A DNA stretch of 22,246 bases from a bacterium (GTDB taxonomy: Bacteria; JAMOTN01): positions 1-22,246 of the forward strand of contig JAMOTN010000068.1 in assembly GCA_027062325.1 (NCBI GenBank), given 5' to 3'. Under the pieces are notes generated by a model that searched no databases, was not told the DNA's origin, and saw only the letters and a program-made list of their open reading frames with translations. Shown here in pieces: positions 436 to 22,246 of this stretch. Every line of letters starts with the position of its first letter. Position 1 is the first letter of the stretch. The position numbers and the translations under genes are program-made.

Positions 436-475
436 TGTTCCTACAACATATCTGGTGTTTCTACAACATATCTGG
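436..475. repeat. 20-bp tandem duplication spanning the stop codon of the last dynamin gene
   Basis: TGTTCCTACAACATATCTGG at 436-455 and TGTTTCTACAACATATCTGG at 456-475 differ at one base. The second copy contains the last codons and the TAG stop (463-461) of the minus-strand dynamin-like gene. The duplication therefore repeats the gene's 3' end directly downstream of it. It looks like a recent slippage duplication. Confidence 0.85.
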
Positions 476-2548
476 CAAGCTATTCTTTAAATTCATCAAT
501 GCATCACGTATTCGGGCCACTCCATCTTCTACTTCCTTTAGAATCTCCGCCAGCTGTTTACTGTTGAGTTTGTTATTGCTTTTCGCTACTTTCCTAATCT
601 TGTTTAAGGTCTCTGCAATTTCAACCGTGGAATCCATCCATTCCGCAAGCAAGTTTTCTAATTCGCTTATCAAATTTTCATATACCCAAATCACAGAAAG
701 TGAGGTTGTTTTAACGTATTTCCTAAATCTTTTCCAGAACTTCACAAATTCAATTACTGCTGGGAAGTTAGAGAACTCCAAAAGATTGTGGTAGCTTACT
801 GTTTCTATTTCGTGAACTGTTTTGAGAGCATCAATTGCATCTTGCAAAAATTTTAGCGTATGATTATTTAAAGAGCCTTTTTTGATTTTTTTTAGAAAAC
901 TTTCCACATCTTGTGCTCTGGTGAAAGAGGGGTATGCTTCTTCTATCTGTTTTACCTCACTAAAAAGTTTAGCAGATACGGGAATTACAATAATTTTTTC
1001 TTCTGGCAATCCCAGGTTGTGCAGTTTGTTTTTGATAAAATGAGCAATTCGTAATGGAATTTTTATGGTTGCCATGTCGTGTTCCATTACGTCTATTTTG
1101 TTAATGAGACATAATATTGCTGGAGATTCTTCTCCAGTTTCTTTTATTTTCTTCACAGTGTCGGCAATTTCCTTCAAGAGTTTTAATTCTATATCCTGCA
1201 AGTGTTTTGAGTAGTCCATAACAAAAATTATTAGGTCTGAGGAAAAGATTAAGTCCTCAAGAATTTGATAAAGAAAATTATGTTCTGATGCTGCGAAATC
1301 GGGACCTACGGTATCCACAAGTTTAATGGATTCCATTAGTCTTTGGGAGGTAAGTGAGGGGTCTAAGTAAGGTAAACTTTGTGAGAGAGGAAAGAAAACG
1401 CCTATATATCCTAATTTTTTACCGTCATATTTTTTTTCTTCAAACATTTCAAATAAATGATTGTAAAGGTCCTTTGAACTGGGAAAGATTTGAATTCCGC
1501 CTTCAGTTTCGTCTGTGATAAGAACACTTTTAGAATTGAAGATGTTGACACCTTCATATATAACGATGTTTGGAGTAGGTGTCTCTGAACTTTCTGGAGC
1601 ATATTTTTTGCCAATAAGTGCGTTTATAACAGAACTTTTACCTGCTTTTTTACTTCCCAAAAGAAGATAAACATGGTTTGCCCGCATTTTTTCATTTAAT
1701 GTGTTAGTCAATAGATCAATATCAGCTACTATTTTTTCACACGCGAAGGCATTTACTAATAGGTTAAATGAAAATAAGTTGTAAAGTTCGATTAAGAAAC
1801 TAAAATCTACTTTTTCAAGTGGCAACCCTACTAAATATAGGGTTTCGCTGAGTATTTGTCGCAACCCTTCTGCTACTGCTTTTAAGTTGGAAAAGTTGAA
1901 CAATAACGTTTCTCCCAGGAAGTGTTCCATGCTTATCAAAAAAGCTTTTTCTGAAATACCCAGATAAAGCATTGCTTCTGCAGTTTTAAAAATTTGATCT
2001 TCAGGAACAAACAAAAGAATCACGTTCTGCGTAGCTGTTGTCTCCAATGAGGCAATAAAATTAACAAAGTCTGAAAAACGTTTTATTGTTATAGTTTCAA
2101 AATAGCTGGAGGCAAGGTTAAGAAAGACTTCTTCTGTAAGTTCTACAACTTCTTCCTCTATACTTCTTTTCCCTCTTCTTTCTGGTTTCCCCCTTTCTTT
2201 TTTGTGTTTGTTGACTCCCGTATCTTCCCCGTCCTTTTTTAAAGTGAATTTCCTTTGAAAAAATTTTCTAATTCTCTTTTTTAACTCTGAAGGAATTTCC
2301 TTTTTCCTAAACCAACTTTTTATATAGAACTCCTCATATTTGTTGGGGGGTGCCCATGCAACAATAGCACCCCCTTTATATTCAACTTCTTCACATACCT
2401 TCACAGCTATTTTCAGAGAATCATTAATATTTCCTCCGACTTCTTCCAGCACCGTGTGTAATTTTTCTTCACCTGTCCAAATAACATGTTTTTTCCTATT
2501 TAGCGCTTCCATTAAATGAAATTTGTTTTTCGTTGTTATCACATCCAT
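461..2548 (-). CDS. dynamin-like GTPase C (short form)
   Basis: Large GTPase of the dynamin superfamily, inferred to act at membranes. With the frame opened at GTG 2620 (residue 1), the G motifs are GSKKAGKS (G1, 322-329), ETPTPN (G2 region, 346-351), DTVGPD (G3, 436-441), NKID (G4, 507-510) and VSAK (G5, about 548-551). GTG 2620 has no visible ribosome site. ATG 2548 lies 12 nt after AAGGAG and gives 695 residues, so I prefer it. The N-terminal region, with a charged insert at about 120-165, and the G domain both match the 907-aa protein of this cluster; shared blocks include DYSKH and SNF. Only about 160 residues follow the G domain against about 470 in the paralogue, so most of the stalk is missing. 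It is the last gene of the cluster, just behind the 880-aa GTPase. Its partner and exact role are unknown. Confidence 0.85.
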   Translation of the reverse strand: MDVITTKNKFHLMEALNRKKHVIWTGEEKLHTVLEEVGGNINDSLKIAVKVCEEVEYKGGAIVAWAPPNKYEEFYIKSWFRKKEIPSELKKRIRKFFQRKFTLKKDGEDTGVNKHKKERGKPERRGKRSIEEEVVELTEEVFLNLASSYFETITIKRFSDFVNFIASLETTATQNVILLFVPEDQIFKTAEAMLYLGISEKAFLISMEHFLGETLLFNFSNLKAVAEGLRQILSETLYLVGLPLEKVDFSFLIELYNLFSFNLLVNAFACEKIVADIDLLTNTLNEKMRANHVYLLLGSKKAGKSSVINALIGKKYAPESSETPTPNIVIYEGVNIFNSKSVLITDETEGGIQIFPSSKDLYNHLFEMFEEKKYDGKKLGYIGVFFPLSQSLPYLDPSLTSQRLMESIKLVDTVGPDFAASEHNFLYQILEDLIFSSDLIIFVMDYSKHLQDIELKLLKEIADTVKKIKETGEESPAILCLINKIDVMEHDMATIKIPLRIAHFIKNKLHNLGLPEEKIIVIPVSAKLFSEVKQIEEAYPSFTRAQDVESFLKKIKKGSLNNHTLKFLQDAIDALKTVHEIETVSYHNLLEFSNFPAVIEFVKFWKRFRKYVKTTSLSVIWVYENLISELENLLAEWMDSTVEIAETLNKIRKVAKSNNKLNSKQLAEILKEVEDGVARIRDALMNLKNSLPDML

Positions 2549-2638
2549 TGATCTCTTTCTCTCCTTATTGTTAATCTCTTCTCTCTTTGTCGTTGTTTTA
2601 TCCTTATTTATACTTGCCACAACAGCCAGTAAAAGGGG

Positions 2639-5281
2639 TTATATGTGGCTCAGCTCTGCCTTTAGTTCGCAAATTTTGCCGAGTATTTCGTTGGCGATTC
2701 TAACCTCTAATTCCTTTTTAGCATTTTTTTCGATTTTAGAAGGGGCGATTAAAGCGATGTTGTTAACTATAAATTCCCAGAAAATATTGGGATTGTCCTT
2801 TGTATGTGGAGATTTTATTTTGTCAACAAGAATTTCGTAATAGTAGGTCAACACGTCAACAATGGTTTCTTCAAGTCCAAGAGCATTTACAACGGTTTCC
2901 GTGAGTATCTTTTTTATGATTTCTGCATCCTTTTCTATCTCTTTTTCTACTTCTTCATAGCTTGCGTAATGTGTTTTTGTTACCTCAATGTTTTCACTTA
3001 ATGCATCTGCCCTCTCTTCCTCCAATCTGTCCTCTGGATTCTTCCAATACAGGGAAAGGTGACGTTCTATAGAATCAAGAATTTTACTCGAAAAACTTTT
3101 TTTAGAAAGGGATTTACTCTTACTGGGAACTGCGGTGTTTTTAGCGGAATTTGCTGTAGCTTGTTCTTGTTGGGAGGTTTGCAATTCTTCCATTATCTCA
3201 TCTAATTTTTCTGTTACGAGCTCTAGAAGAGCAGATATTGTTTGCTTAGACAAGTTTACCATTTTATCTAAACGGCTTTTTTTAAACAGGAAGGAAACCA
3301 GTTGTAAAGCTAGTGTTTCCTTTCCAACGTATTTCTCAAGCCCGGGATATTTCTTAAAAATTTCCTCAATCATCTCTTTAAACCCTTTCCAATTAACCAT
3401 CTCCTCCTGATAAATGAGTTCATTTTTTATGCCTTCAAAAGGTAGAGGAAGATAAGGATCAAAGTTTTCGTTATATGCAAACAAGCTGTATATATCTCTT
3501 TCCCATGTTTTAAAAACGTTCACACGGTCAGTTGACCCAACTCTATGCTTCATTATTTCTACAAATGGTCTTGTGTAACGCTGTGTTATAACTTTTATAA
3601 TTTCATGTCCTTTGGCAAACGGAAACTCTCTATCCAGTAATTCCACAAGTTTCTCTAAAAGCTTATCCCATTCATCTTTGTCAGCTTCCATTACTTCAAG
3701 CAGTTTTTCGGCAAACTTTCTGTTGATTTCCTGCAGATACGCCACAAGAACGTCTTCCAGAAAAGCCAGCTTGCTTTGCAATTTCCGGCGAAAAACTTCA
3801 CGTAGTCTTTTGGCATATTCTTCCGTAACTTCAGCTTCGCGAACGTATTCTGCAGCAAGCTGGGTTTTTATTTGATCTTTCTCTTTATCTGAAATGCTAA
3901 GGTCCATGTTTCTTATTCGCTCTATAAGTTGCTTACTTATGGCTTTCTCGTTTTTTATTTTTAGCACTTCAAAATTTTTAAAACGCGCCAGTTTTCCTTC
4001 ACCTTTTTCCGTTATATCCAGCATGAGTTTATCATAAGTTTCTTTGACAAGACCCACGTAGTTTTTTCTGACAGTGTTGGGATCTGCAACGGACTGTAAA
4101 ATTTTTTCCAATGTGTCAATAATCTCGTGCAATTCTTCAAGTCGTCTGTTGATTTTCTTCTCAAGATTTGGAATCCTTTCCTTTTCGTTGTATTCCTCAA
4201 GTTTTTTCTTCAACTCTTCAATCCCGCTGGTAATCCCCAATCCTTTCAGCCTTTCAGAAGCATTTATCTCAGATGGGACAACTCCTTTTTCTTCAAGATA
4301 GGCAAGCGCAGATCCAAAAATGACCCTGTATTCTGGAACGTTGAGATTGTATTTTTTTAGCTCGTTCATAAAAACTTCAAAATTTTCCTGTAAAGCTTTT
4401 GAACTACTTAGCATGTCAGCTTGGTTCAGGAAGAAAAAAAGCTTTTCTGTAAGGTAACTTCCCTCTTCTCTCATCTTAGGACTGAGTATCATGTCAACTT
4501 CGGGTTTGTTTATGCTGGGTTTATGTGCAGGCCTTATGTAAACGATTGCGTCTACTTCTTTCATTTTCTGTTGAGTATATTTTGAGTGGCGTATTGCGGG
4601 CGAATCAAAGCCGGGCAGATCGTACATGATTATATTTTTGAACTTTTCCAAGGCTGGCGATTTAATAATTACGGTTTTTATTGCCAGAGATTTGTATTCG
4701 TCGGTAATAAAACTGCGAGCCTGTTCAGGAGACATGGTTTCTATGCCTCTATCAAGCAGTCTTTTGATTTCCCTTTTCCCATTTACCATTGATTTAAGAT
4801 CATTTATAACCGAATTTACCTCTGAAGACGAAAATTTTTCTCCTACTTTTTCTATCTCTTCCATTCTCAAACTTTCCAGTGTTTGCTCGTACGCATTTGG
4901 GTAACCGATTTCAGCCAGCATTTGACGGAGTTTTTGAGTGAACTCTTCGCGCGTGAGAAAGTGGACCTCTGCAGTCGGGGTATCCGAATAAACAATTTGA
5001 GTGATGGCATAAGTCATTCTTCTGTCGGCGCGTGGAAGTATATCGTTTTCTATGAGAGCGTTTAAAAATGTGCTTTTACCCGAACTTTCAGTTCCAACAA
5101 CCGCTACTTCAAATATGCCCTTCTCAAACTTTTCTTTGAACTTCTCAAAATCGCGTCGCAGCGAGTAAATTTTATCGTAATCAATCTCTACCGGAAAATC
5201 CGAGCTATACTCTTCCAGCTTTTCAAGGAGTGAAAGAGCTTTATCAACCTTTGGTTTTAGCCTGTCAAAAGAAAACTTCAT
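2639..5281 (-). CDS. dynamin-like GTPase B (Dynamin_N type, 880 aa)
   Basis: Large GTPase with a classic bacterial dynamin layout: a short N-terminal helical segment, a G domain, then about 500 residues of mostly charged helix. Motifs are GTESSGKS (G1, 63-70), RRMTYAIT with the switch Thr (about 87-94), DLPGFD (G3, 221-226), NQAD (G4, 286-289) and GSA (G5, 323-325). G4 has Gln where Lys is usual. A Ser/Lys/Thr-rich low-complexity linker lies at roughly 720-755, before the last helical part. Size and order match BDLP- or LeoA-like proteins that bind GTP and remodel or tether membranes. No transmembrane helix is evident, so any membrane contact would be through a paddle or a partner. The start ATG follows GGGAGG at a normal distance. 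It does not share the N-terminal domain of the other two dynamins here and is a separate branch. Confidence 0.9.
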   Translation of the reverse strand: MKFSFDRLKPKVDKALSLLEKLEEYSSDFPVEIDYDKIYSLRRDFEKFKEKFEKGIFEVAVVGTESSGKSTFLNALIENDILPRADRRMTYAITQIVYSDTPTAEVHFLTREEFTQKLRQMLAEIGYPNAYEQTLESLRMEEIEKVGEKFSSSEVNSVINDLKSMVNGKREIKRLLDRGIETMSPEQARSFITDEYKSLAIKTVIIKSPALEKFKNIIMYDLPGFDSPAIRHSKYTQQKMKEVDAIVYIRPAHKPSINKPEVDMILSPKMREEGSYLTEKLFFFLNQADMLSSSKALQENFEVFMNELKKYNLNVPEYRVIFGSALAYLEEKGVVPSEINASERLKGLGITSGIEELKKKLEEYNEKERIPNLEKKINRRLEELHEIIDTLEKILQSVADPNTVRKNYVGLVKETYDKLMLDITEKGEGKLARFKNFEVLKIKNEKAISKQLIERIRNMDLSISDKEKDQIKTQLAAEYVREAEVTEEYAKRLREVFRRKLQSKLAFLEDVLVAYLQEINRKFAEKLLEVMEADKDEWDKLLEKLVELLDREFPFAKGHEIIKVITQRYTRPFVEIMKHRVGSTDRVNVFKTWERDIYSLFAYNENFDPYLPLPFEGIKNELIYQEEMVNWKGFKEMIEEIFKKYPGLEKYVGKETLALQLVSFLFKKSRLDKMVNLSKQTISALLELVTEKLDEIMEELQTSQQEQATANSAKNTAVPSKSKSLSKKSFSSKILDSIERHLSLYWKNPEDRLEEERADALSENIEVTKTHYASYEEVEKEIEKDAEIIKKILTETVVNALGLEETIVDVLTYYYEILVDKIKSPHTKDNPNIFWEFIVNNIALIAPSKIEKNAKKELEVRIANEILGKICELKAELSHI

Positions 5282-5355
5282 CGTGATCTACCTCCCTCTT
5301 TTCTGCTAAACCGACTCTAGCCACTTCGCCTCCCATTAGGTTTCCACAAGCGCCC

Positions 5356-5478
5356 TTAGTTTGAATTTTCTAAGATTTTTTCCAGTTTTTCCAAAGTATC
5401 CTTGAGTTGTAATGTGATGTCTTTTAGTTCTTTAACAACCTCCTTTAACTGCTGATTTACAGAGAATGCTTGATTAAT
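5356..5478 (-). other. out-of-frame coiled-coil extension of the tail-anchored protein (-1 frame)
   Basis: Seen directly: the frame one base behind that of the upstream 206-aa gene stays open past that gene's TAA (5459-5457) down to TAA at 5358-5356. From 5478 it encodes 40 residues, INQAFSVNQQ then LKEVVKELKD and ITLQLKDTLE, with Leu/Val/Ile at heptad a and d positions. There is no ATG, GTG or usable TTG near its beginning. It can be translated as a continuation only if ribosomes slip -1 around C TTA AAA (5484-5478) at the end of the membrane helix, giving a 240-aa product. Otherwise a one-base change in the DNA or the assembly has broken a longer gene. The heptamer is not a canonical slippery site. 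Confidence 0.65.
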
Positions 5479-6077
5479 TTTAAGAAAATCATAATTACCA
5501 AGATTACGAATACAACCCCAAATATTAGCCACATCATTCTTGCTAAGTTCCTTGAGCGACTTTCCTCTTGAAGAGAACGAGTTGAAAATTTTTTTTTCAA
5601 TCCACTTAGATTTTCTTTTCCGTACTTTTTGTCAAATTCTTCAAAGTTCTCCTTCAATTCCGCAAAATATTTTGGTTCCACCTCTTCAAATATTTCTGCC
5701 ATTACTCCGAGAATCCGAATAAACAGATCCGTATCTTTTACAACTCTGTTGAAAGCCTCTTCAACCAATTTCTCCTGTCGCTGATGTTTAAACCATATAA
5801 AACTGCGCAGTTTGTAAATGTTTTGACTTAGAAGTTTGACTCCTTCCTGATCAAAGAGGTAGGAGGCAACCTCTATGAGAATGGAGTCAAAGTTTACTGT
5901 TTGAATGGTTAAGGCATTCCCCTTGTAATTTTGACGAGCTATCTCTTTCTCTCTCTTTAGGAACAGTTCCTCAACCTCAATTCCTTTCATTCCCTCACCT
6001 ATCTCTATTCCCATGAGTTCTGCAAGTTCAGATAGCTTCTCTGAACCACTTTCAAATGCACGATCGTAAAAAATCAT
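5457..6077 (-). CDS. small tail-anchored protein between two dynamin genes
   Basis: I do not recognise the family. The 206-residue product is helical and charged (LKENFEEFDKK and similar runs) and ends in one hydrophobic segment at about 181-199 (MMWLIFGVVFVILVIMIFL), followed by a short basic tail. This is the layout of a C-terminally anchored inner-membrane protein with its bulk in the cytoplasm. The frame can open at GTG 6086, which overlaps the upstream TGA, but AGAGGTGA (6090-6083) sits six bases before ATG 6077 and that start is better supported. It lies five bases after the 907-aa dynamin gene, so co-translation is likely, and the 880-aa dynamin gene follows. By position it could recruit or anchor the GTPases. 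A coiled coil encoded in the -1 frame directly after its end suggests a longer form. Confidence 0.75.
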   Translation of the reverse strand: MIFYDRAFESGSEKLSELAELMGIEIGEGMKGIEVEELFLKREKEIARQNYKGNALTIQTVNFDSILIEVASYLFDQEGVKLLSQNIYKLRSFIWFKHQRQEKLVEEAFNRVVKDTDLFIRILGVMAEIFEEVEPKYFAELKENFEEFDKKYGKENLSGLKKKFSTRSLQEESRSRNLARMMWLIFGVVFVILVIMIFLKLIKHSL

Positions 6078-6082
6078 ATTCT

Positions 6083-6090
6083 TCACCTCT
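6083..6090 (-). promoter_or_regulatory. ribosome binding site that sets the start of the tail-anchored gene
   Basis: The complement reads AGAGGTGA, overlapping the TGA stop of the 907-aa gene and ending six bases before ATG 6077. It favours ATG 6077 over the longer GTG start at 6086, which would lie inside this site. Confidence 0.65.
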
Positions 6091-8806
6091 TTACTTGATA
6101 AAGTTTAGAGATTTGATTCCATCTTGTAGTAAAACCTTCAATGTGCTTTTCAAACTCTTCAAGTAGTTTTTTGACCTTTTGTCTTTCTTCTACAGACAAC
6201 TCCAAAGCCTTCAAAACATCCTCTATTGGTTGTCTGACACTGTTTATGAAGGATACGACATTTTGCCAAAATTCCTCTGCCTTTTGACGAGTTATCTCTT
6301 CCACTACTTCTCTTAAACTTTGCTGAATTCCCTCACTTGAGATAATCTTCTCAATTTTACTGGCAATCTCTCCTTGAGCCTCCTGAAAGTGAGAGATGAC
6401 TTCTTCAAGTACTCCATCCGCACGTTCATCTATGGAAACGGGGCTTGCAAATGGAAGAATTTTTCGCAGAAAACCAGTGTGAACATGCTTGAAAACTTCT
6501 TTAAAATCAACTTCAATGCGTAATTTTTCCAAATCCAGGATATTGTTTTCAACTTTTTTTATAATCTCTGCTAACCAATGCTGCCATTCAAACGACGGGG
6601 AAATTGAAGGTAATTCTACTTCAAGCTTTTCTGGCAGTAATTTGTCCACTTCAATGCCTTGCAACTCATCTTTAAGTGTTTTAAGGGCACCTTCTACCTC
6701 CGATTTTAAGTTTTCCATTTCCTTTTCAAGTCTTTTTTCGTATTCTTCAATTTTCTTCTCTAAATCCTCCCTCAAAATCCCACGGAATTCTTCCCTTAAT
6801 AGAGCTTCTATTCCATCTATTAGAAAATCTCCCTTGAAAATAGTTAGATGAGAAAACTGGGATTTTAGCCTTTCTAATTCATCCTCAATACTCGTGAATA
6901 TTTTATCTAACCAGCCCTTCTGAGAAATTTCTGTCAGTTCGTTTATAAGTCTTTCCGTTAACTTTCTAAAGTAGTCAGAAGCAGCAATTAAATTCTCACT
7001 TGCAATTGCTTGGATACTTTTTTGGGTGGTGATTACACTTATATGCACGACTTCTTCTTTGACTTCTTCCAAGCTTTCCACAATTCTCCTAAATCGTTCT
7101 TCCGATAGAAGTGAGCTTGTGTAGTTCAAAAACTTGGTGGATGCTTGACGGATTTTTTCGGTTTCGTCGGATATTAGAAGAAGCCCACTTTTGCAGGTGT
7201 TTTGGACCAGTTTTTGCCTGGTGTCAACTGTGGCAAAGGTTGAATATGCCTTTTCTATATAGGCTTTGTCCTGGGCAACGTAGATCAGATGATTCTTGAA
7301 GGGTTCAAAGTTGGAAAGGGCAACTATATCCTCAAATCTAATTTCATCGGGGTCAACTTCAAAAATGTATTCAAAGGTGTTAATTTGATTCTGTATAAAT
7401 CTAGCAACTGCTCTATCTATCTTATCCTTATACACTTTCGGGCGTAGAAATTCTTTCCACTCCGGATTATTCACGGCTTCTGGAAACTTTTTCTTAAATT
7501 CCACGGTATAGAAATACGTCATAGCAGAAATTGGAATTGCGACCACTCCTTCCAACCCACTTCTTTCAAGAACATGCCTTATAAAGAGAGCAACGCGAGA
7601 TATTATCTTTTCGGTTGAAGTGTCGTCAAACATTAGATCAAGTTTGTTTATCGCGCATATTAGGGAATGCATTTTTTGTTTGAAAACTTCTTTCAGCCTT
7701 TCAAGAAGTTCCACTTCACTCTCTTGGGCGTGTTTTGAGTAATCCACCACGAAAACTGCAACATCGGCTTTATTCAAATACTCTTCCGCTATCCTTTTGT
7801 GATCCTCTGCTCCTGCAAGGTCTGGCCCCGGAGTATCGTAAATTTCAAAATTAATACCGGGCTTTCGGGGATAATAAACACGCATTGTGGGAAGTCCTTC
7901 TCCTCTATCTTTTACCCTTTCAAACTCCATATGTATGTAATCCCATAGTTCTTCTTTTGTGGAAAAGTGCAAGGTTCTACCGCCGTATTCAAGCTTTAAC
8001 CCTCCATCGTGAGGAATGTATTCAATAACATTTGGGGTTGGAAGTTCAGCACTTGTCGGAGCAAACTCTTCTCCAAGCAGTGCGTTGACAACCATACTTT
8101 TGCCGGATTTCTTGGTGGCAAAGACCGCAACTTTTATATTTCTCAACTCAAGTTTTCTAAGATTTTCAATAATCGCTTTAAAATTATCACGAGTTGTTGT
8201 TACCAGTTCACCTACAATTTTTTTAAGCTGGGAACTGGCACCTATAAGTTCTGGATTCGCCTCTAGGTTAAAATTTTGAGCATACTTAAAAGATTCTTCG
8301 GCTGCTTCTATAACCTCTTCCTTTTGGCTTTCAAAAACTTTCAATGCTTTCTTTGTAGCAACTTCAGACGGGGTGCTGACGTTCCAACGAAGTCCTAAAA
8401 GAATTAACTGTTGAATCGTGTTTGCAACTTCCTTTTCATCCGAGGATTTGACAAGAAGTGTTACACTATTGGGGGTTAATTCGTAGGGGGATATCCCCAG
8501 TTTAAACACTTTATCTAGAGCCTCAGAAAGAGAATATACATCATAGCTTTCCGAGTTTACCTCCAGAACTGCTCCTTCGGAGAACTGAACCTCTTCTGCT
8601 ATCTTCCAAAAATATTTTTCTGCGGAATCAACTTTCTTAAGTCTGCGAGATAAAACTTCAAGTGAGCGGTAAAGCGGAGGGGTTTTAGAATCGTAAATTA
8701 TCACGTATTTTTCTCCGGATGTGAGTAAATTTTCAAGCTCTTTTTCTGATCTGGCAACTTTTACACCTCTGTATTGCATTGAAGGAGATTGAATTGGATT
8801 GATCAT
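6083..8806 (-). CDS. dynamin-like GTPase A (907 aa)
   Basis: Large dynamin-superfamily GTPase. An N-terminal alpha/beta-looking domain (about 15-165) precedes a helical linker and the G domain: ATKKSGKS (G1, 230-237), ELPTPN (G2 region, 254-259), DTPGPD (G3, 324-329), NKLD (G4, 387-390) and ISA (G5, 426-428). The first P-loop residue is Ala instead of Gly. Residues from about 440 to 907 are helical, with long Glu/Lys-rich coiled-coil stretches (about 685-725) and a more hydrophobic patch FLRKILPFASPVS near 785-800 that could be a membrane-contacting tip; that role is inference. The start ATG follows AAGGAGGT at eight bases. An extended -10 promoter lies upstream, so this gene can head its own transcript with the tail-anchored protein and the other two GTPases. 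Its N-terminal and G domains are paralogous to the 695-aa protein. Confidence 0.9.
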   Translation of the reverse strand: MINPIQSPSMQYRGVKVARSEKELENLLTSGEKYVIIYDSKTPPLYRSLEVLSRRLKKVDSAEKYFWKIAEEVQFSEGAVLEVNSESYDVYSLSEALDKVFKLGISPYELTPNSVTLLVKSSDEKEVANTIQQLILLGLRWNVSTPSEVATKKALKVFESQKEEVIEAAEESFKYAQNFNLEANPELIGASSQLKKIVGELVTTTRDNFKAIIENLRKLELRNIKVAVFATKKSGKSMVVNALLGEEFAPTSAELPTPNVIEYIPHDGGLKLEYGGRTLHFSTKEELWDYIHMEFERVKDRGEGLPTMRVYYPRKPGINFEIYDTPGPDLAGAEDHKRIAEEYLNKADVAVFVVDYSKHAQESEVELLERLKEVFKQKMHSLICAINKLDLMFDDTSTEKIISRVALFIRHVLERSGLEGVVAIPISAMTYFYTVEFKKKFPEAVNNPEWKEFLRPKVYKDKIDRAVARFIQNQINTFEYIFEVDPDEIRFEDIVALSNFEPFKNHLIYVAQDKAYIEKAYSTFATVDTRQKLVQNTCKSGLLLISDETEKIRQASTKFLNYTSSLLSEERFRRIVESLEEVKEEVVHISVITTQKSIQAIASENLIAASDYFRKLTERLINELTEISQKGWLDKIFTSIEDELERLKSQFSHLTIFKGDFLIDGIEALLREEFRGILREDLEKKIEEYEKRLEKEMENLKSEVEGALKTLKDELQGIEVDKLLPEKLEVELPSISPSFEWQHWLAEIIKKVENNILDLEKLRIEVDFKEVFKHVHTGFLRKILPFASPVSIDERADGVLEEVISHFQEAQGEIASKIEKIISSEGIQQSLREVVEEITRQKAEEFWQNVVSFINSVRQPIEDVLKALELSVEERQKVKKLLEEFEKHIEGFTTRWNQISKLYQVKR

Positions 8807-8888
8807 TTATACCTACCTCCTTGTCCAAAAATTCAAACATACTTTTCACGTTTTTGTCATTATTTTGTGATAAAAGCAAACCGGTAAC

Positions 8889-8897
8889 ATTATATCA
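8889..8897 (-). promoter_or_regulatory. extended -10 promoter ahead of the 907-aa dynamin gene
   Basis: The complement reads TGATATAAT, a perfect TGnTATAAT extended -10 element, in the 148-bp space between the 429-aa gene and the 907-aa gene. No good -35 is present, which extended -10 promoters tolerate. The leader would be about 75 bases. It suggests the downstream four genes can be expressed apart from the first two. Confidence 0.5.
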
Positions 8898-8954
8898 AAT
8901 ATTCGCCTTTGCTTTTTTCTCCCCCTTCTTTTCTTCTTGGTTGGAGGTTGAAAT

Positions 8955-10244
8955 TTATAAAATATCAAGATTGTCAAACTTTTTTTCAAATTTTTCTTCA
9001 AATACTTTTTCAAATTCTTCTGTAGGATGATCTTTGCGATAGATGAGTTTTTCTTCTTTAGTTGATGCAATTTCTTCAAGCTTTAAATTAGCTTGCAGGA
9101 GGAGTTTGTAGAACGACAGTAGGATTTCATCGGCGAATTCTCCATAGGAATCCCATTTTTTCATTGTTTGCTTCACCCTAACAATTGCTTCTGCTGCTAT
9201 ACGTGCTGTGATCTCAGTGCGACTGGTTGGACTATAAAGCCGTAAGGGTTTTAAAATCTTTCTCTTTAAACTGTCAACGATGTAGTCAGCAATACTTCCT
9301 CCATAGCCCCCGCGATAGAGAAATTCAAAAATTAGCTCATCCCACATTTCAATCTCGCTTTCAACGACTCTGCCGTTGGCGATCACATCTCCAAAAATCT
9401 TTGAGGTTAAATTTGCGTGAGATTTTATCACAGTGGCAATTTCCTCGTCTGAAAAGATACGCCTGATGTGGTAAGTTATATCGTGCAACAACTTTGTTTT
9501 TAAAAGATCAGCTGCTGTGAATAGGACAGAAAGATACCTTTCGAAAAGATTGTTGATTTCTTTTATATTCCAATGTACATCTGGAGAAAAATAGTCCAAG
9601 CTATCGGCAAGTAGTTTCGTTCCATAAAAGGTACCAGTTTTCCTTCTTCTACGAAGTAAATCCAGCAAGGATTTTCTTCCGTCATTCAACTCTGAGATAA
9701 GAGATAAACCTCCTTTAAGAAGTTCTGTCACCGTGGAGATCACTTTAGCACTCTTCACTTTTTTCCTAAGTTCCTCAGCCATCCTGTAACAGATCGGTAA
9801 ATCCTCCACAGGTATACCCTGAGAAATATCCAGAATGGATTCTGCAGTTTCAGCTATGAGAGTTTTATCAGCAGAAGAGATTTCCCACTTTTTCAAAACG
9901 CGCGGTGAGAACTTTTTTATCACCTTGTTATACAATTCAATTTCTATTTCAGGGATGATAAGTTGCTTTTGCTCGGCAACTATTCTGGATATTTCCTTTA
10001 CCTTTTCCTTAAATTCTTCTATGGACATGGGCGTGTGATAATCCTTAATCTTTTGTTGAACGTAAAGTAACAGCTGGCCAGAAAGCTTTGAAAGTGCAGA
10101 GCTGACAAGTTTAATATAACTTGGATGTTTTTTCACAACTTTTTGTATTTCGCTTGCAATTTCAAGGATAAGCTGATTGTCAAATTTTTTCTTTTCAAAT
10201 TCCCTTTTCGATTCCCTTTTCCCAAATTTACCCCTCTTTACCAT
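8955..10244 (-). CDS. helical protein of unknown family in the dynamin cluster
   Basis: The 429-residue product matches no family I can name. It appears entirely alpha-helical and highly charged, with no signal peptide, no clear transmembrane helix and no nucleotide-binding motif. A basic start (KRGKFGKRESKREFEKKKF) and an acidic/basic end (EEKFEKKFDNLDIL) flank a body with Leu-rich segments such as LLKGGLSLISEL. The frame also opens at GTG 10253, but AAAGGGGTGG (10259-10250) sits five bases before ATG 10244, so that start is chosen. The gene lies between the 341-aa protein and the 907-aa GTPase, same strand, 148 bp before the latter. It may be an accessory or effector subunit of the dynamin system; that rests on position alone. 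Confidence 0.75.
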   Translation of the reverse strand: MVKRGKFGKRESKREFEKKKFDNQLILEIASEIQKVVKKHPSYIKLVSSALSKLSGQLLLYVQQKIKDYHTPMSIEEFKEKVKEISRIVAEQKQLIIPEIEIELYNKVIKKFSPRVLKKWEISSADKTLIAETAESILDISQGIPVEDLPICYRMAEELRKKVKSAKVISTVTELLKGGLSLISELNDGRKSLLDLLRRRRKTGTFYGTKLLADSLDYFSPDVHWNIKEINNLFERYLSVLFTAADLLKTKLLHDITYHIRRIFSDEEIATVIKSHANLTSKIFGDVIANGRVVESEIEMWDELIFEFLYRGGYGGSIADYIVDSLKRKILKPLRLYSPTSRTEITARIAAEAIVRVKQTMKKWDSYGEFADEILLSFYKLLLQANLKLEEIASTKEEKLIYRKDHPTEEFEKVFEEKFEKKFDNLDIL

Positions 10245-10328
10245 CCAAACCACCCCTTTCTTTTTGGGGAAGGTCCTACGAGCAGCCTTCAGGAAATTGT
10301 TGTGGTAGAACCTACCCCTTTGCTACCC

Positions 10329-10357
10329 CTGCCCTGCGTATAGAAGATACAGGGCAG
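10329..10357. repeat. inverted repeat / RNA hairpin without a T-tract
   Basis: CTGCCCT at 10329-10335 pairs with AGGGCAG at 10351-10357, and inside it GTAT (10338-10341) pairs with ATAC (10347-10350), leaving the loop AGAAG and a two-base bulge. Neither strand has a run of T after it, so a plain intrinsic terminator is unlikely. It could be a processing or mRNA-stabilising structure between the 341-aa and 429-aa genes. Confidence 0.6.
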
Positions 10358-10418
10358 AAAAGCCACAGAGCAGAAAAGCTGAAGCAGAGTGTGTTAAGCT
10401 GTGGTGGCGTTACTATGG

Positions 10419-10433
10419 GTTGGTTTTGCAATT
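10419..10433. repeat. 15-bp direct repeat, copy 1
   Basis: GTTGGTTTTGCAATT occurs here and again, same orientation, at 12374-12388. The two copies bracket the 341-aa gene and the two pseudogenes. A shorter relative (CTTTGCAATTG) is at about 10462. Confidence 0.75.
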
Positions 10434-10552
10434 GTGTTCCAGCTTTATAGTTACATCTAAGCTTTGCAATTGCGCCAAAGTTTGGATTTTAAGCAGAAGT
10501 TCCAAGCCACTTTCTCTGGTTTTTGGCTGTGGCTCTCAGCATATCAAGGAAG

Positions 10553-11578
10553 CTACACCAAATCCTTCGTGATATCCACGAATATTTGTGACGCGCTGTC
10601 AAAAAGAGATGTAATCTTCTCGGCAATTTCTCTTGCAAAGGATTCGTTCATTTTGCTACTCAATCCCCATTTAACTGCAGTTCCTATAAGGGGGATGAAA
10701 CGTGTAAGCTGTTTTGAAGTGGATCTGGCAAACAGTCTTGTTGCCATTCGTTGAAGGGTTGCTCTCAAACCCTTTCGTGTAAATAGATAGCGGACTTCTG
10801 CTATGAATGCTGAGGTAAGTTTGGTAACAACAGGACTTTTTACAAGTTTGTCTGTAAGTTGTGGGAGAAATTTTGAAATTGTGTAGTGTTTGGCAATGCC
10901 GTGTGCTAGTGCTTTTGCCACACTTTGACTCACCGTTTTTCTCGCCATTGAATTGAATTTCCTTTGCAAAGACTTTTTGACTTGCTTAGCCAGATTCTCA
11001 AAAGCAATAACGGTAAACGCGGTGGCAAGGATAGATTCTATAACTAACGTGCTGTATCTAGAGGAAAACTTGTAGGTGCTGTTTAGTGTAGCCGCTACCT
11101 CGCCCCCCATTGATGCTAATTTGATAAATCCCGAAACAGGACCCAGGGCATTTGAAGCAAGGTCTAAAAGACTTGATAGGATGTTGTGATTTTGGAGTTC
11201 GGCGTAAAGATTTTTGAAAACAAGATTAAATATCATACTTTTCACTCTGTTGATTTTTACAAAGTTTGGTCTGTTTAAAACTGCTTCAACTACGCATTCT
11301 GCAATCTTCTTTTTCAACCTTCTTTCTTCTGGAGTAAGTTTTTCAAGCTTGACAGGCTTTATTTCAAGCATTTGAAAAACTGCCTCCACAGCCGGTGCCA
11401 CAACTTCAAATATTTTTTCTTTCAAATTCCGATAGTCCCCCATAAGTGTTTCTATTTCTTTCTCTATTTCTTTCTCAACTTTTCTTTTCTCAATGATGGC
11501 TTTTAGAGCTGAACCAACAGCCTCATAAATGAATTGCTCATTAGAAAGATGGGAAATTACGAAGAGATTTTTCCTCAT
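10553..11578 (-). CDS. helical protein with EcsC/DUF697-like C-terminal motif, first gene of the dynamin cluster
   Basis: The 341-residue product is predicted helical, with a hydrophobic stretch near residues 178-193 (LVIESILATAFTVIAF) and a C-terminal segment RFIPLIGTAVKWGLSSKMN (about 293-311). The latter resembles the hydrophobic 'iPxiGaxxgaxxN' ending of EcsC and DUF697 proteins, a family that often occurs with dynamin-type or small GTPases. This is a resemblance by eye, not a domain hit. The frame opens further upstream at ATG 11629, but that ATG has no ribosome site, whereas GGGGGGAGG (complement of 11582-11590) sits just before ATG 11578. It is the most upstream gene of the cluster and is followed by a 308-bp gap. 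Likely membrane-associated; its role is unknown. Confidence 0.7.
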   Translation of the reverse strand: MRKNLFVISHLSNEQFIYEAVGSALKAIIEKRKVEKEIEKEIETLMGDYRNLKEKIFEVVAPAVEAVFQMLEIKPVKLEKLTPEERRLKKKIAECVVEAVLNRPNFVKINRVKSMIFNLVFKNLYAELQNHNILSSLLDLASNALGPVSGFIKLASMGGEVAATLNSTYKFSSRYSTLVIESILATAFTVIAFENLAKQVKKSLQRKFNSMARKTVSQSVAKALAHGIAKHYTISKFLPQLTDKLVKSPVVTKLTSAFIAEVRYLFTRKGLRATLQRMATRLFARSTSKQLTRFIPLIGTAVKWGLSSKMNESFAREIAEKITSLFDSASQIFVDITKDLV

Positions 11579-11728
11579 CTTCCTCCCCCCTTTTTTGCTT
11601 TTTTCTCCTCGCTTCTTACCTGCTTTCATTTATAAAGAGCAAGGTGGAAACAATTTTGTGACATGAAATTTTAAAATTTTGAAGGCAACCATTCTTGACA
11701 GTGCCAAACGAGGCATTGCTAATTCATG

Positions 11729-20367: not shown

Positions 20368-22246
20368 TTAACTGATAGACTTTTCCAAGGTGGGCGATGT
20401 TGAGTTAGAAAGGGCTTCTCTCAAAATTGTGGGTATTTCATGGATTCTTAAAGCTACTTTTATACCCCTAGTCTCCAAATATTTCTGTTTACTGATGGCA
20501 TCTCCCTTCCCACCTTCAACTATCGCTCCTGCATGGCCCATACGACGACCTTGAGGGGCACTTTTCCCAGCAATGTAAGCGACAACTGGCTTGGGGTAAT
20601 TTGTGTTTTTAATATAGTCTGCTGCTGCTTCTTCTGCACTACCTCCTATTTCTCCGATCATGACAACTGCGGCTGTATGGGGATCATCTTTTAGCAACTC
20701 CAATATATCCAAATAATTAGAACCTATAATTGGATCCCCTCCTATACCAATGACAAAGGACTGTCCCATTCCACAGCTACTCAAGAGATTTACAACTTCA
20801 TAAGTTAAAGTTCCACTTCTTGATATGACTGCAATTTTTCCTGGTGTGAATATAGACGCAGGCATGATACCTACCTTTGCAATACCTGGAATCATCAATC
20901 CCGGACAATTTGGTCCCACTATTTTTACTTCAGGATATGTCCTTTGGACAAAATTTTTTACTTCCAGCATATCCTTAACTGGAATACCTTCTGTTATGAC
21001 AACTACATTTTTTATACCGGCTTCTACTGCTTCCAAGATTGCATCCTTTGCAAACGGGGCAGGTACAAAAACAAGAGAAGTGTCTGCTCCAGTCTGATCC
21101 ACTGCTTCTGCAACTGAATTGTAAACCGGAACAAAGAATTCTTTATCTTCTGCTTCAAACTTTATGGTAGTGCTTCCTTTTCCGGGAACAACTCCTCCTA
21201 CAATTTTGCTTCCATAAAGAAGGCACCTTGAGGCATGAAAACTCCCTTCTCTCCCTGTTATTCCTTGCACGATAATTTTATTTATGTTGAGCAGATTTGA
21301 ACCTTTTTCTGACTTCAAATTAAAGGATTCTTGACTGAACTTTTGGAGGTTTATGGGTTTTCCCTCTGCAATTGCCACCGCTGCTTCTACCGCTTCCTTC
21401 AAGTCTTCAAATATGTAGCACTTATTGTTCAAAGAACGTTGTAGAACTTCTACACCTTCCGCATAATTTGTTCCGCGCATTCTTATTACAGTTGGGGGAA
21501 CAGAATCAAGACCAATTTCTTCTACTGCTTCCTTGATACCTGCGGCTATTCTGTCACACCTGACTATGCCTCCAAAGATATTCACTAGAATACAGCTAAC
21601 ATCAGTTTCAAGAGCCAGTATTTTAAATGCTTCTTTAATCCTATCAACAGTAGCCGTTCCACCAACATCTAAAAAGTTGGCCGCCTTTCCTCCAGCTGCA
21701 GCAATTTCATCCATAGTTGCCATTGCAAGTCCTGCACCATTGACCATGCAGCCAATATTTCCATCCAATTTTACAAAGTTTAAACCAATTTTGGTAGCCT
21801 TCAACTCCACTGGATCTACTTGTGATGGATCAAACCAGTCGTTCCACTCAGGATGCCTGAAGGAGGCGTTATCATCTAGGTTGAGTTTTGAATCTATGGC
21901 TATTAGTTCATCATCCTCTGTTAATACAAGAGGATTTATTTCAACTAATGAGGCATCTAACTCTACAAACAAGCTGTATACTGCTCTTGCAATTTTTACG
22001 AAATCCCTCACCAGATTTGGAACGGAGTTAATCAAGCCTGTGTCAAAAAGACCGTAAGCTAGGTTTCTTAACTGAAAATCTTGAACTCCTATGAGTGGAT
22101 CTATGTAAATTTTCTTTATAAGCTCAGGTTTCTCCTCTGCAAGTTTTTCTATCTCAACACCACCTTCTGAAGAAGCTATCATAACTATCTTTTCCGAGGC
22201 TCTATCCAAGGTACAGCCTAAATAAAACTCCTTTTTAATATCCACA
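20368..22246 (-). CDS. sucC-sucD: fused succinyl-CoA synthetase, beta then alpha subunit (5' end outside window)
   Basis: Interconverts succinyl-CoA and succinate with nucleotide triphosphate synthesis. One uninterrupted frame holds both subunits. The first about 295 visible residues are SucC from the end of its ATP-grasp region: VDIKKEFYLG, ASSEGGVEIE, VEINPLVLT, NFLDVGGTATVDR and VNIFGGIVRCDRI. A linker of about 20 residues (NLQKFSQESFNLKSEKGSN) follows, then a complete SucD: GITGREGSFHA, VPGKGST, GPNCPGLMIPG, VISRSGTLTYE, IGIGGDP and GKSAPQGRRMGHAGAIVEGG, whose His (residue 571 counted from 22245) is the phosphohistidine. The GTG at 22245 encodes an internal Val; by comparison with SucC about 90-100 N-terminal residues lie beyond the edge. 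Subunits are separate in most bacteria. The carboxyltransferase gene follows after 47 bases, so co-transcription is likely. Confidence 0.95.
   Translation of the reverse strand, partial: VDIKKEFYLGCTLDRASEKIVMIASSEGGVEIEKLAEEKPELIKKIYIDPLIGVQDFQLRNLAYGLFDTGLINSVPNLVRDFVKIARAVYSLFVELDASLVEINPLVLTEDDELIAIDSKLNLDDNASFRHPEWNDWFDPSQVDPVELKATKIGLNFVKLDGNIGCMVNGAGLAMATMDEIAAAGGKAANFLDVGGTATVDRIKEAFKILALETDVSCILVNIFGGIVRCDRIAAGIKEAVEEIGLDSVPPTVIRMRGTNYAEGVEVLQRSLNNKCYIFEDLKEAVEAAVAIAEGKPINLQKFSQESFNLKSEKGSNLLNINKIIVQGITGREGSFHASRCLLYGSKIVGGVVPGKGSTTIKFEAEDKEFFVPVYNSVAEAVDQTGADTSLVFVPAPFAKDAILEAVEAGIKNVVVITEGIPVKDMLEVKNFVQRTYPEVKIVGPNCPGLMIPGIAKVGIMPASIFTPGKIAVISRSGTLTYEVVNLLSSCGMGQSFVIGIGGDPIIGSNYLDILELLKDDPHTAAVVMIGEIGGSAEEAAADYIKNTNYPKPVVAYIAGKSAPQGRRMGHAGAIVEGGKGDAISKQKYLETRGIKVALRIHEIPTILREALSNSTSPTLEKSIS

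What the first reader, a model, noticed from the sequence alone, without database searches (positions are those of the whole stretch)
5356..5490. Coiled coil hidden in the -1 frame right after the tail anchor
The -1 frame relative to the 206-aa gene stays open past that gene's stop and encodes a 40-residue heptad-repeat helix (LKEVVKELKD, ITLQLKDTLE and onward) ending in its own TAA. It has no start codon. Translating it requires a -1 shift near C TTA AAA at the end of the membrane helix. Two protein forms, with and without a coil on the far side of the membrane segment, would be a simple way to vary partner binding. A plain one-base indel is the competing explanation.
Basis: partly seen in the sequence, partly recalled or inferred. 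Interest (0 to 1): 0.65.

Follow-up and report, generated by a model that had tools for sequence, protein, structure and literature searches.

The report
Frame-split tail of dynamin partner gene
A small membrane-protein gene sitting between two bacterial dynamin genes has its real coiled-coil end in a shifted reading frame; most likely one base was lost (in the cell or in the assembly), although an unusual run of nine As nearby leaves room for a genuine slippage switch.

Summary
Confirmed: on the minus strand, the -1 frame of the 206-aa gene runs past its stop (5459) to TAA 5358-5356 and encodes a strong coiled coil. Openness alone is weak evidence. The coil is not accidental: none of 20,000 random open frames and none of 4,195 short stop-to-stop stretches of the same genome scores as well, and its codon usage is coding-like. 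The best-scoring shift point is exactly TTA AAA (5483-5478). The gene lies between two dynamin-like GTPase (DLP) genes. Eight loci in Selenomonadales and one other Bacillota genome carry related DLP genes with a small protein beside them. In the six membrane-anchored ones, membrane helix and C-terminal helix share one frame, with 41-73 residues after the membrane (4 here without the coil, about 40 with it). They are positional counterparts; sequence homology was not detectable. C TTA AAA is a very weak slip site. Most likely the gene once read TM plus coil continuously and one base has been lost, in the cell or in the assembly. Overlooked: an A9 run (5597-5589), a canonical A_AAA_AAA site, after which the -1 frame stays open. 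Slippage there would give a membrane-free coil form. No close relative is held, so this cannot be settled.

The parts
5457..6077 (-). 206-aa 0-frame gene: helical N-terminal region and one membrane helix, stop at 5459-5457
   Evidence: AGAGGTG upstream of ATG 6077. No Pfam family. AlphaFold single-sequence model weak except the TM helix, pLDDT 82-92
5478..5537 (-). membrane helix (MMWLIFGVVFVILVIMIFLK), 0 frame
   Evidence: Hydropathy 3.18 over 19 residues, highest of the proteins compared; AF2 helix
5478..5483 (-). TTA AAA: maximum-likelihood point of the 0 to -1 frame change; A_AA.A tetramer
   Evidence: Two-state codon model: 20.4 nats here, 16.3 at the A9 run, 12.3 with no shift
5356..5478 (-). 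-1 frame tail with coiled coil, ending in TAA 5358-5356
   Evidence: coil score not reached by any null sequence; coding-like codon usage
5589..5597 (-). A9 run; in-frame canonical -1 heptamer A_AAA_AAA; -1 frame open from here to the coil stop
   Evidence: Only A9 in the window, 8.9 expected; in 354 own genes 3 runs of A9 or longer seen, about 27 expected
5356..5532 (-). 58-aa ORF with GTG start in the -1 frame (rival: separately started overlapping gene)
   Evidence: no well-placed Shine-Dalgarno sequence
6083..8806 (-). 907-aa dynamin-like GTPase directly upstream, stop 6 bases before the 206-aa start
   Evidence: Pfam Dynamin_N 9.5e-17
2639..5281 (-). 880-aa dynamin-like GTPase directly downstream
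   Evidence: Pfam Dynamin_N 5.3e-21; DynA-like 1.5e-21, below the family cut-off
461..2620 (-). 719-aa third dynamin-like GTPase, paralogue of the 907-aa one
   Evidence: Dynamin_N 5.2e-11; 29% identity over the GTPase core

Best explanation
The gene encodes the small membrane-bound partner of a dynamin-like GTPase pair: a helical N-terminal region, one membrane helix, then a C-terminal coiled coil. Ancestrally these lay in one continuous frame giving a protein of about 240 aa. In this assembly one base is missing near the end of the membrane helix (about 5490-5470), so the 0 frame stops 4 residues after the membrane and the coil is stranded in the -1 frame. The loss is either a real recent mutation or an assembly or sequencing error. 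Shown: the two frames, the coil's non-randomness, the DLP neighbours and the likely switch point. Inferred: that the counterparts are true homologues, that the ancestral frame was continuous, and that the protein (membrane anchor plus coil) helps recruit or organise the DLP pair at the membrane.
For: Coil frame is coding, not chance. Codon model: 0 frame through the membrane helix, then -1, switch at 5483-5478, 8 nats better than no switch. Counterparts: six of six TM-bearing small proteins beside these DLP genes (L029, L067, L075, L078, L079, L080) have TM and C-terminal helix in one frame, with 41-73 residues after the membrane versus 4 here without the coil and about 40 with it. The counterpart's C-terminal helix is predicted confidently (pLDDT 86-94). 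No slippery heptamer or unusual RNA structure at the switch point (PMC4066793). Frame transitions in singletons are mostly indels or errors, and those near the 3' end rather real indels (PMC3711429).
Against: No close relative is available, so an intact copy was not seen. Neither the N-terminal region nor the coil matches the counterparts by sequence. No other clear start-less frameshifted gene was found in 523 kb (378 genes) of the same genome, so assembly indels appear rare. The -1 frame is open, and unusually coding-like, already across the membrane helix (top 3% of open -1 shadows of membrane helices), which a simple indel does not explain.
Confidence: 0.55

Rival explanations
1. Slippage at the A9 run (RNA polymerase slippage, or -1 ribosomal shift at A_AAA_AAA). 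Unslipped product: membrane form without coil. Slipped product: about 240 aa, coil without membrane helix. One gene would make an anchored and a soluble form.
For: A9 is the only such run in the window and runs of nine or more are strongly avoided in this genome's genes (3 vs about 27). It lies in frame as A_AAA_AAA, and the -1 frame is open from there to the coil stop, with 3.8% chance over the overlap given the protein. The -1 frame over the membrane helix is unusually coding-like. Thermus dnaX uses an A9 run for about 50% slippage (PMC1088944). Counterpart loci L067 and L078 carry tandem copies, one without and one with a membrane helix.
Against: Codon model prefers the switch after the membrane helix by about 4 nats. 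No RNA stimulator. Counterparts keep membrane and C-terminal helix in one protein. No conservation test possible.
Confidence: 0.17
2. Programmed -1 frameshift at C TTA AAA giving TM plus coil as a minor form.
For: Switch point by codon model is exactly here; A_AA.A is a possible tetramer motif.
Against: Motif barely shifty without a strong stimulator (PMC4066793); no structure (z about 0); counterparts continuous.
Confidence: 0.08
3. Separate overlapping small gene starting at GTG 5532 (58 aa) that makes the coil as its own peptide.
For: Start codon in frame; -1 frame over the overlap is coding-like; counterpart L029 has its N-terminal region and its TM plus helix in two ATGA-overlapping ORFs.
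Against: No well-spaced Shine-Dalgarno sequence; in L029 the split is before, not after, the membrane helix.
Confidence: 0.1
4. The A9 run itself has the wrong length (error or mutation): the true gene reads straight into the -1 frame, and the membrane helix is an artefact of the shadow frame.
For: A9 is rare and error-prone; -1 frame open and coding-like throughout.
Against: A 19-residue stretch of hydropathy 3.18 flanked by Arg is very unlikely by chance; the codon model with a membrane state prefers the 0 frame through the helix.
Confidence: 0.06
5. The coil frame is an accident of AT-rich sequence.
For: 33 open codons past a stop are common.
Against: Coil score not reached in 20,000 random frames or 4,195 short ORF stretches.
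Confidence: 0.04

Closest known systems
Bacterial dynamin-like protein (DLP) operon pairs, e.g. Campylobacter DLP1/DLP2, DynA, LeoABC
   Same: Two large DLPs encoded side by side (PMC6104087 says most bacterial DLPs are paired in operons)
   Different: A small membrane protein sits between the two DLP genes here (after both in the counterparts); no Pfam or PADLOC family, and no cut-off-passing NCBIfam family, covers it
Small proteins beside DLP genes in Selenomonadales and one other Bacillota genome (L012, L029, L067, L075, L078, L079, L080)
   Same: Size, position next to the DLP genes, helical N-terminal region, membrane helix, C-terminal helix
   Different: No detectable sequence similarity to the window protein; frame continuous (in L029 split before the membrane helix)
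Thermus thermophilus dnaX transcriptional slippage at A9
   Same: Run of nine As in the sense strand late in the gene (78% here; seven-eighths in dnaX)
   Different: In dnaX the shifted product is shorter; here it would be longer and swap a membrane helix for a coil; no RNA evidence
-1 programmed frameshifting at X_XXZ_ZZN heptamers (dnaX of E. coli, IS3-family elements)
   Same: A_AAA_AAA in frame at 5597-5589
   Different: No stimulator found, no conservation, and the codon-model switch point is elsewhere

Membership tests
Programmed -1 ribosomal frameshift gene | Slippery heptamer or tetramer in the overlap | tested here: met
   A_AAA_AAA at 5597-5589 and A_AA.A at 5481-5478 (sequence); the second is very weak (PMC4066793)
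Programmed -1 ribosomal frameshift gene | Downstream RNA structure or upstream SD stimulator | tested here: not met
   Folding z-scores 0.1 to 0.3
Programmed -1 ribosomal frameshift gene | Frame break conserved in homologues | tested here: inconclusive
   No close homologue held; six positional counterparts are continuous between membrane and C-terminal helix
Programmed -1 ribosomal frameshift gene | Both products made | not testable with these tools
   Needs proteomics or reporter assay
Transcriptional slippage gene (A9/T9 type) | Run of nine or more A/T in the coding sequence of a genome that avoids them | tested here: met
Transcriptional slippage gene (A9/T9 type) | Heterogeneous mRNA length at the run | not testable with these tools
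   No RNA data
Indel-disrupted gene | Intact continuous copy in close relatives | not testable with these tools
   No other genome of the phylum held
Indel-disrupted gene | Both parts show coding character, with a single switch point | tested here: met
DLP-module small membrane protein | Adjacent to a DLP gene pair | tested here: met
   counterparts
DLP-module small membrane protein | N-terminal domain homologous to the counterparts | tested here: not met
   HMM and hhalign not significant; helix spacing similar only in a low-confidence model

The most novel reading that the evidence does not exclude
A nine-A slippage site turns one gene into two proteins: a membrane-anchored form without coil and a soluble form with coil, replacing the tandem anchored and unanchored copies seen beside related dynamin genes. 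The roughly 45 codons after the A run would be read in two frames.
Probability: 0.15. Interest if true: 0.65.

Novelty: new member of a known kind. Interest (0 to 1): 0.35.

Why it matters
It documents a recurring small membrane protein beside bacterial dynamin-like GTPases that has no family model, and gives a concrete testable locus (A9 run plus frame-split coil) for slippage-made membrane and soluble isoforms. If it is only an indel, it is a routine annotation correction that restores a coil-bearing partner protein.

Tried and rejected
Close relatives: P0001 against own genome, 59 relatives, genome contigs and viral contigs gave nothing usable; the phylum has one held genome; 386 relatives with the 907-aa DLP as single sequence or profile gave only distant GTPases or nothing. 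Phages and plasmids gave no match for a related DLP. A profile of the counterpart C-terminal helices does not recognise the coil, so homology of the coil is not claimed. The N-terminal profile does not recognise the window gene. RNA stimulators at both slip sites: none. Single-sequence AlphaFold of the 209-aa translation is low confidence outside the TM helix; the counterpart's model has no significant PDB fold match. The SD-like AAAGGAGGT at 5446-5438 was considered as a start signal for the coil and rejected: no start codon at a usable distance.

Full report
What is there. The gene is on the minus strand. A 907-aa dynamin-like GTPase (8806-6083) ends 6 bases before the ATG at 6077 of a 206-aa protein, which ends at TAA 5459-5457 directly after a very hydrophobic helix (MMWLIFGVVFVILVIMIFLKLIKHSL). 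An 880-aa and a 719-aa dynamin-like GTPase follow. The -1 frame has its last upstream stop at 5634 and is open to TAA 5358-5356. Its last 33 codons, beyond the 0-frame stop, encode NQQLKEVVKELKDITLQLKDTLEKLEKILENSN.

Is it more than chance? Openness alone is weak: 33 codons are open about 8% of the time (non-stop probability 0.927 per codon), and 19% of genes in 523 kb of this genome have 33 or more open -1 codons past their stop, real downstream genes included. The sequence content is strong. A heptad score that counts hydrophobic a/d positions, charged residues and absence of Pro/Gly was not reached by any of 20,000 random open frames, nor by any of 4,195 short stop-to-stop stretches of the genome. 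It was reached by 0.19% of stretches of long ORFs and 0.1% of shuffles of the same residues. The score was devised after seeing the sequence, so these numbers are somewhat optimistic. Codon usage lies at the 29th percentile of in-frame segments and in the top 3.7% of out-of-frame open ones. I conclude that the coil frame is real coding sequence (about 0.9).

Where does the frame change? A two-state (globular/membrane) codon model trained on the other genes gives 12.3 nats without a shift, 20.4 with a shift at 5483-5478 (TTA AAA), and 16.3 with a shift at the A9 run 5597-5589. It is the only A9 in the window against 8.9 expected; in 354 genes of the genome only 3 runs of A9 or longer occur against about 27 expected from synonymous shuffling. 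It sits in frame as A_AAA_AAA. From there the -1 frame is open to the coil stop; given the protein, openness over the overlap has a probability of 3.8%. The -1 frame across the membrane helix scores in the top 3% of open -1 shadows of membrane helices, while the 0 frame scores low for a membrane helix. This mild sign of dual coding is unexplained by a simple indel.

Relatives. No close relative is held: the genome is the only one of its phylum, and protein and DNA searches found none. Distant relatives of the DLPs were found in Selenomonadales and other Bacillota. At eight or nine of those loci small proteins of 165-281 aa, or a 109-aa protein followed by a 65-aa one, follow a DLP gene or DLP pair. 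They share a helical N-terminal domain with each other. Five of them (L067 second copy, L075, L078 second copy, L079, L080) continue through one or two membrane segments to a C-terminal helix in one frame. In L029 the N-terminal domain and the TM-plus-helix part are two ORFs overlapping by ATGA, but membrane and C-terminal helix are still in one frame. The counterparts have 41-73 residues after the last membrane segment; the window protein has 4 in the 0 frame and about 40 with the -1 tail. The AlphaFold model of one counterpart has a confident N-terminal domain and C-terminal helix. Sequence homology between the window protein and these counterparts is not detectable, so they are positional and architectural counterparts only.

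Mechanism. The architecture argues that membrane helix and coil belong to one protein, and every TM-bearing counterpart reads them continuously, which favours a one-base loss near 5490-5470 in this genome or its assembly. The C TTA AAA site is an A_AA.A tetramer, the weakest of the clearly positive tetramers in E. coli, with motifs barely shifty without a pseudoknot (PMC4066793), and no unusual structure follows it. A survey of frame transitions attributes singletons mostly to indels or sequencing errors, those near the 3' end rather to real indels (PMC3711429). Against a careless assembly, I found no other clear start-less frameshifted gene among 378 genes. The chief rival is slippage at A9. 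Thermus dnaX uses an A9 run with about 50% slippage (PMC1088944), and slippage here would give a soluble coil form beside the membrane form, reminiscent of the tandem copies with and without membrane helix at L067 and L078.

Function (inference). Most bacterial DLPs occur as operon pairs (PMC6104087). A small membrane protein with a C-terminal helix next to the pair would most simply tether or organise the DLPs at the membrane; the coil would be the oligomerisation or DLP-binding part. Nothing here tests this.

Verdict. A one-base frame break is the most likely cause (0.55). A9 slippage (0.17), a separately started overlapping ORF (0.10), a programmed shift at TTA AAA (0.08), a wrong A9 length (0.06) and accident (0.04) follow.

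Noticed in passing
5589-5597 (-): Only A9 run of the window, in a genome whose genes strongly avoid runs of nine or more; in frame as A_AAA_AAA.
   Followed up: partly
5438-5446 (-): Strong Shine-Dalgarno-like AAAGGAGGT inside the coil-coding stretch with no start codon at a usable distance.
   Followed up: partly
461-11629 (-): Cluster of three dynamin-like GTPases with 432-aa and 358-aa genes upstream; neither of those two matches any Pfam family.
   Followed up: no
L067, L078, L010, L012: Tandem copies of the small protein after the DLP gene; in L067 and L078 the first lacks and the second has a membrane helix.
   Followed up: partly
[quoted passage not shown]
   Followed up: partly
20368-22245 (-): Apparent fusion of succinyl-CoA synthetase beta and alpha subunits in one ORF (625 aa, at the contig end); judged from the translation only.
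   Followed up: no
L087 and L088 (G684, G721): Selenomonadales 880-aa DLP homologues broken by a stop or frame change in mid-gene.
   Followed up: no
L106:498-1194: +1-frame downstream ORF resembling a YraN-type protein overlaps the preceding gene by 32 codons; long overlap or a frameshift.
   Followed up: no
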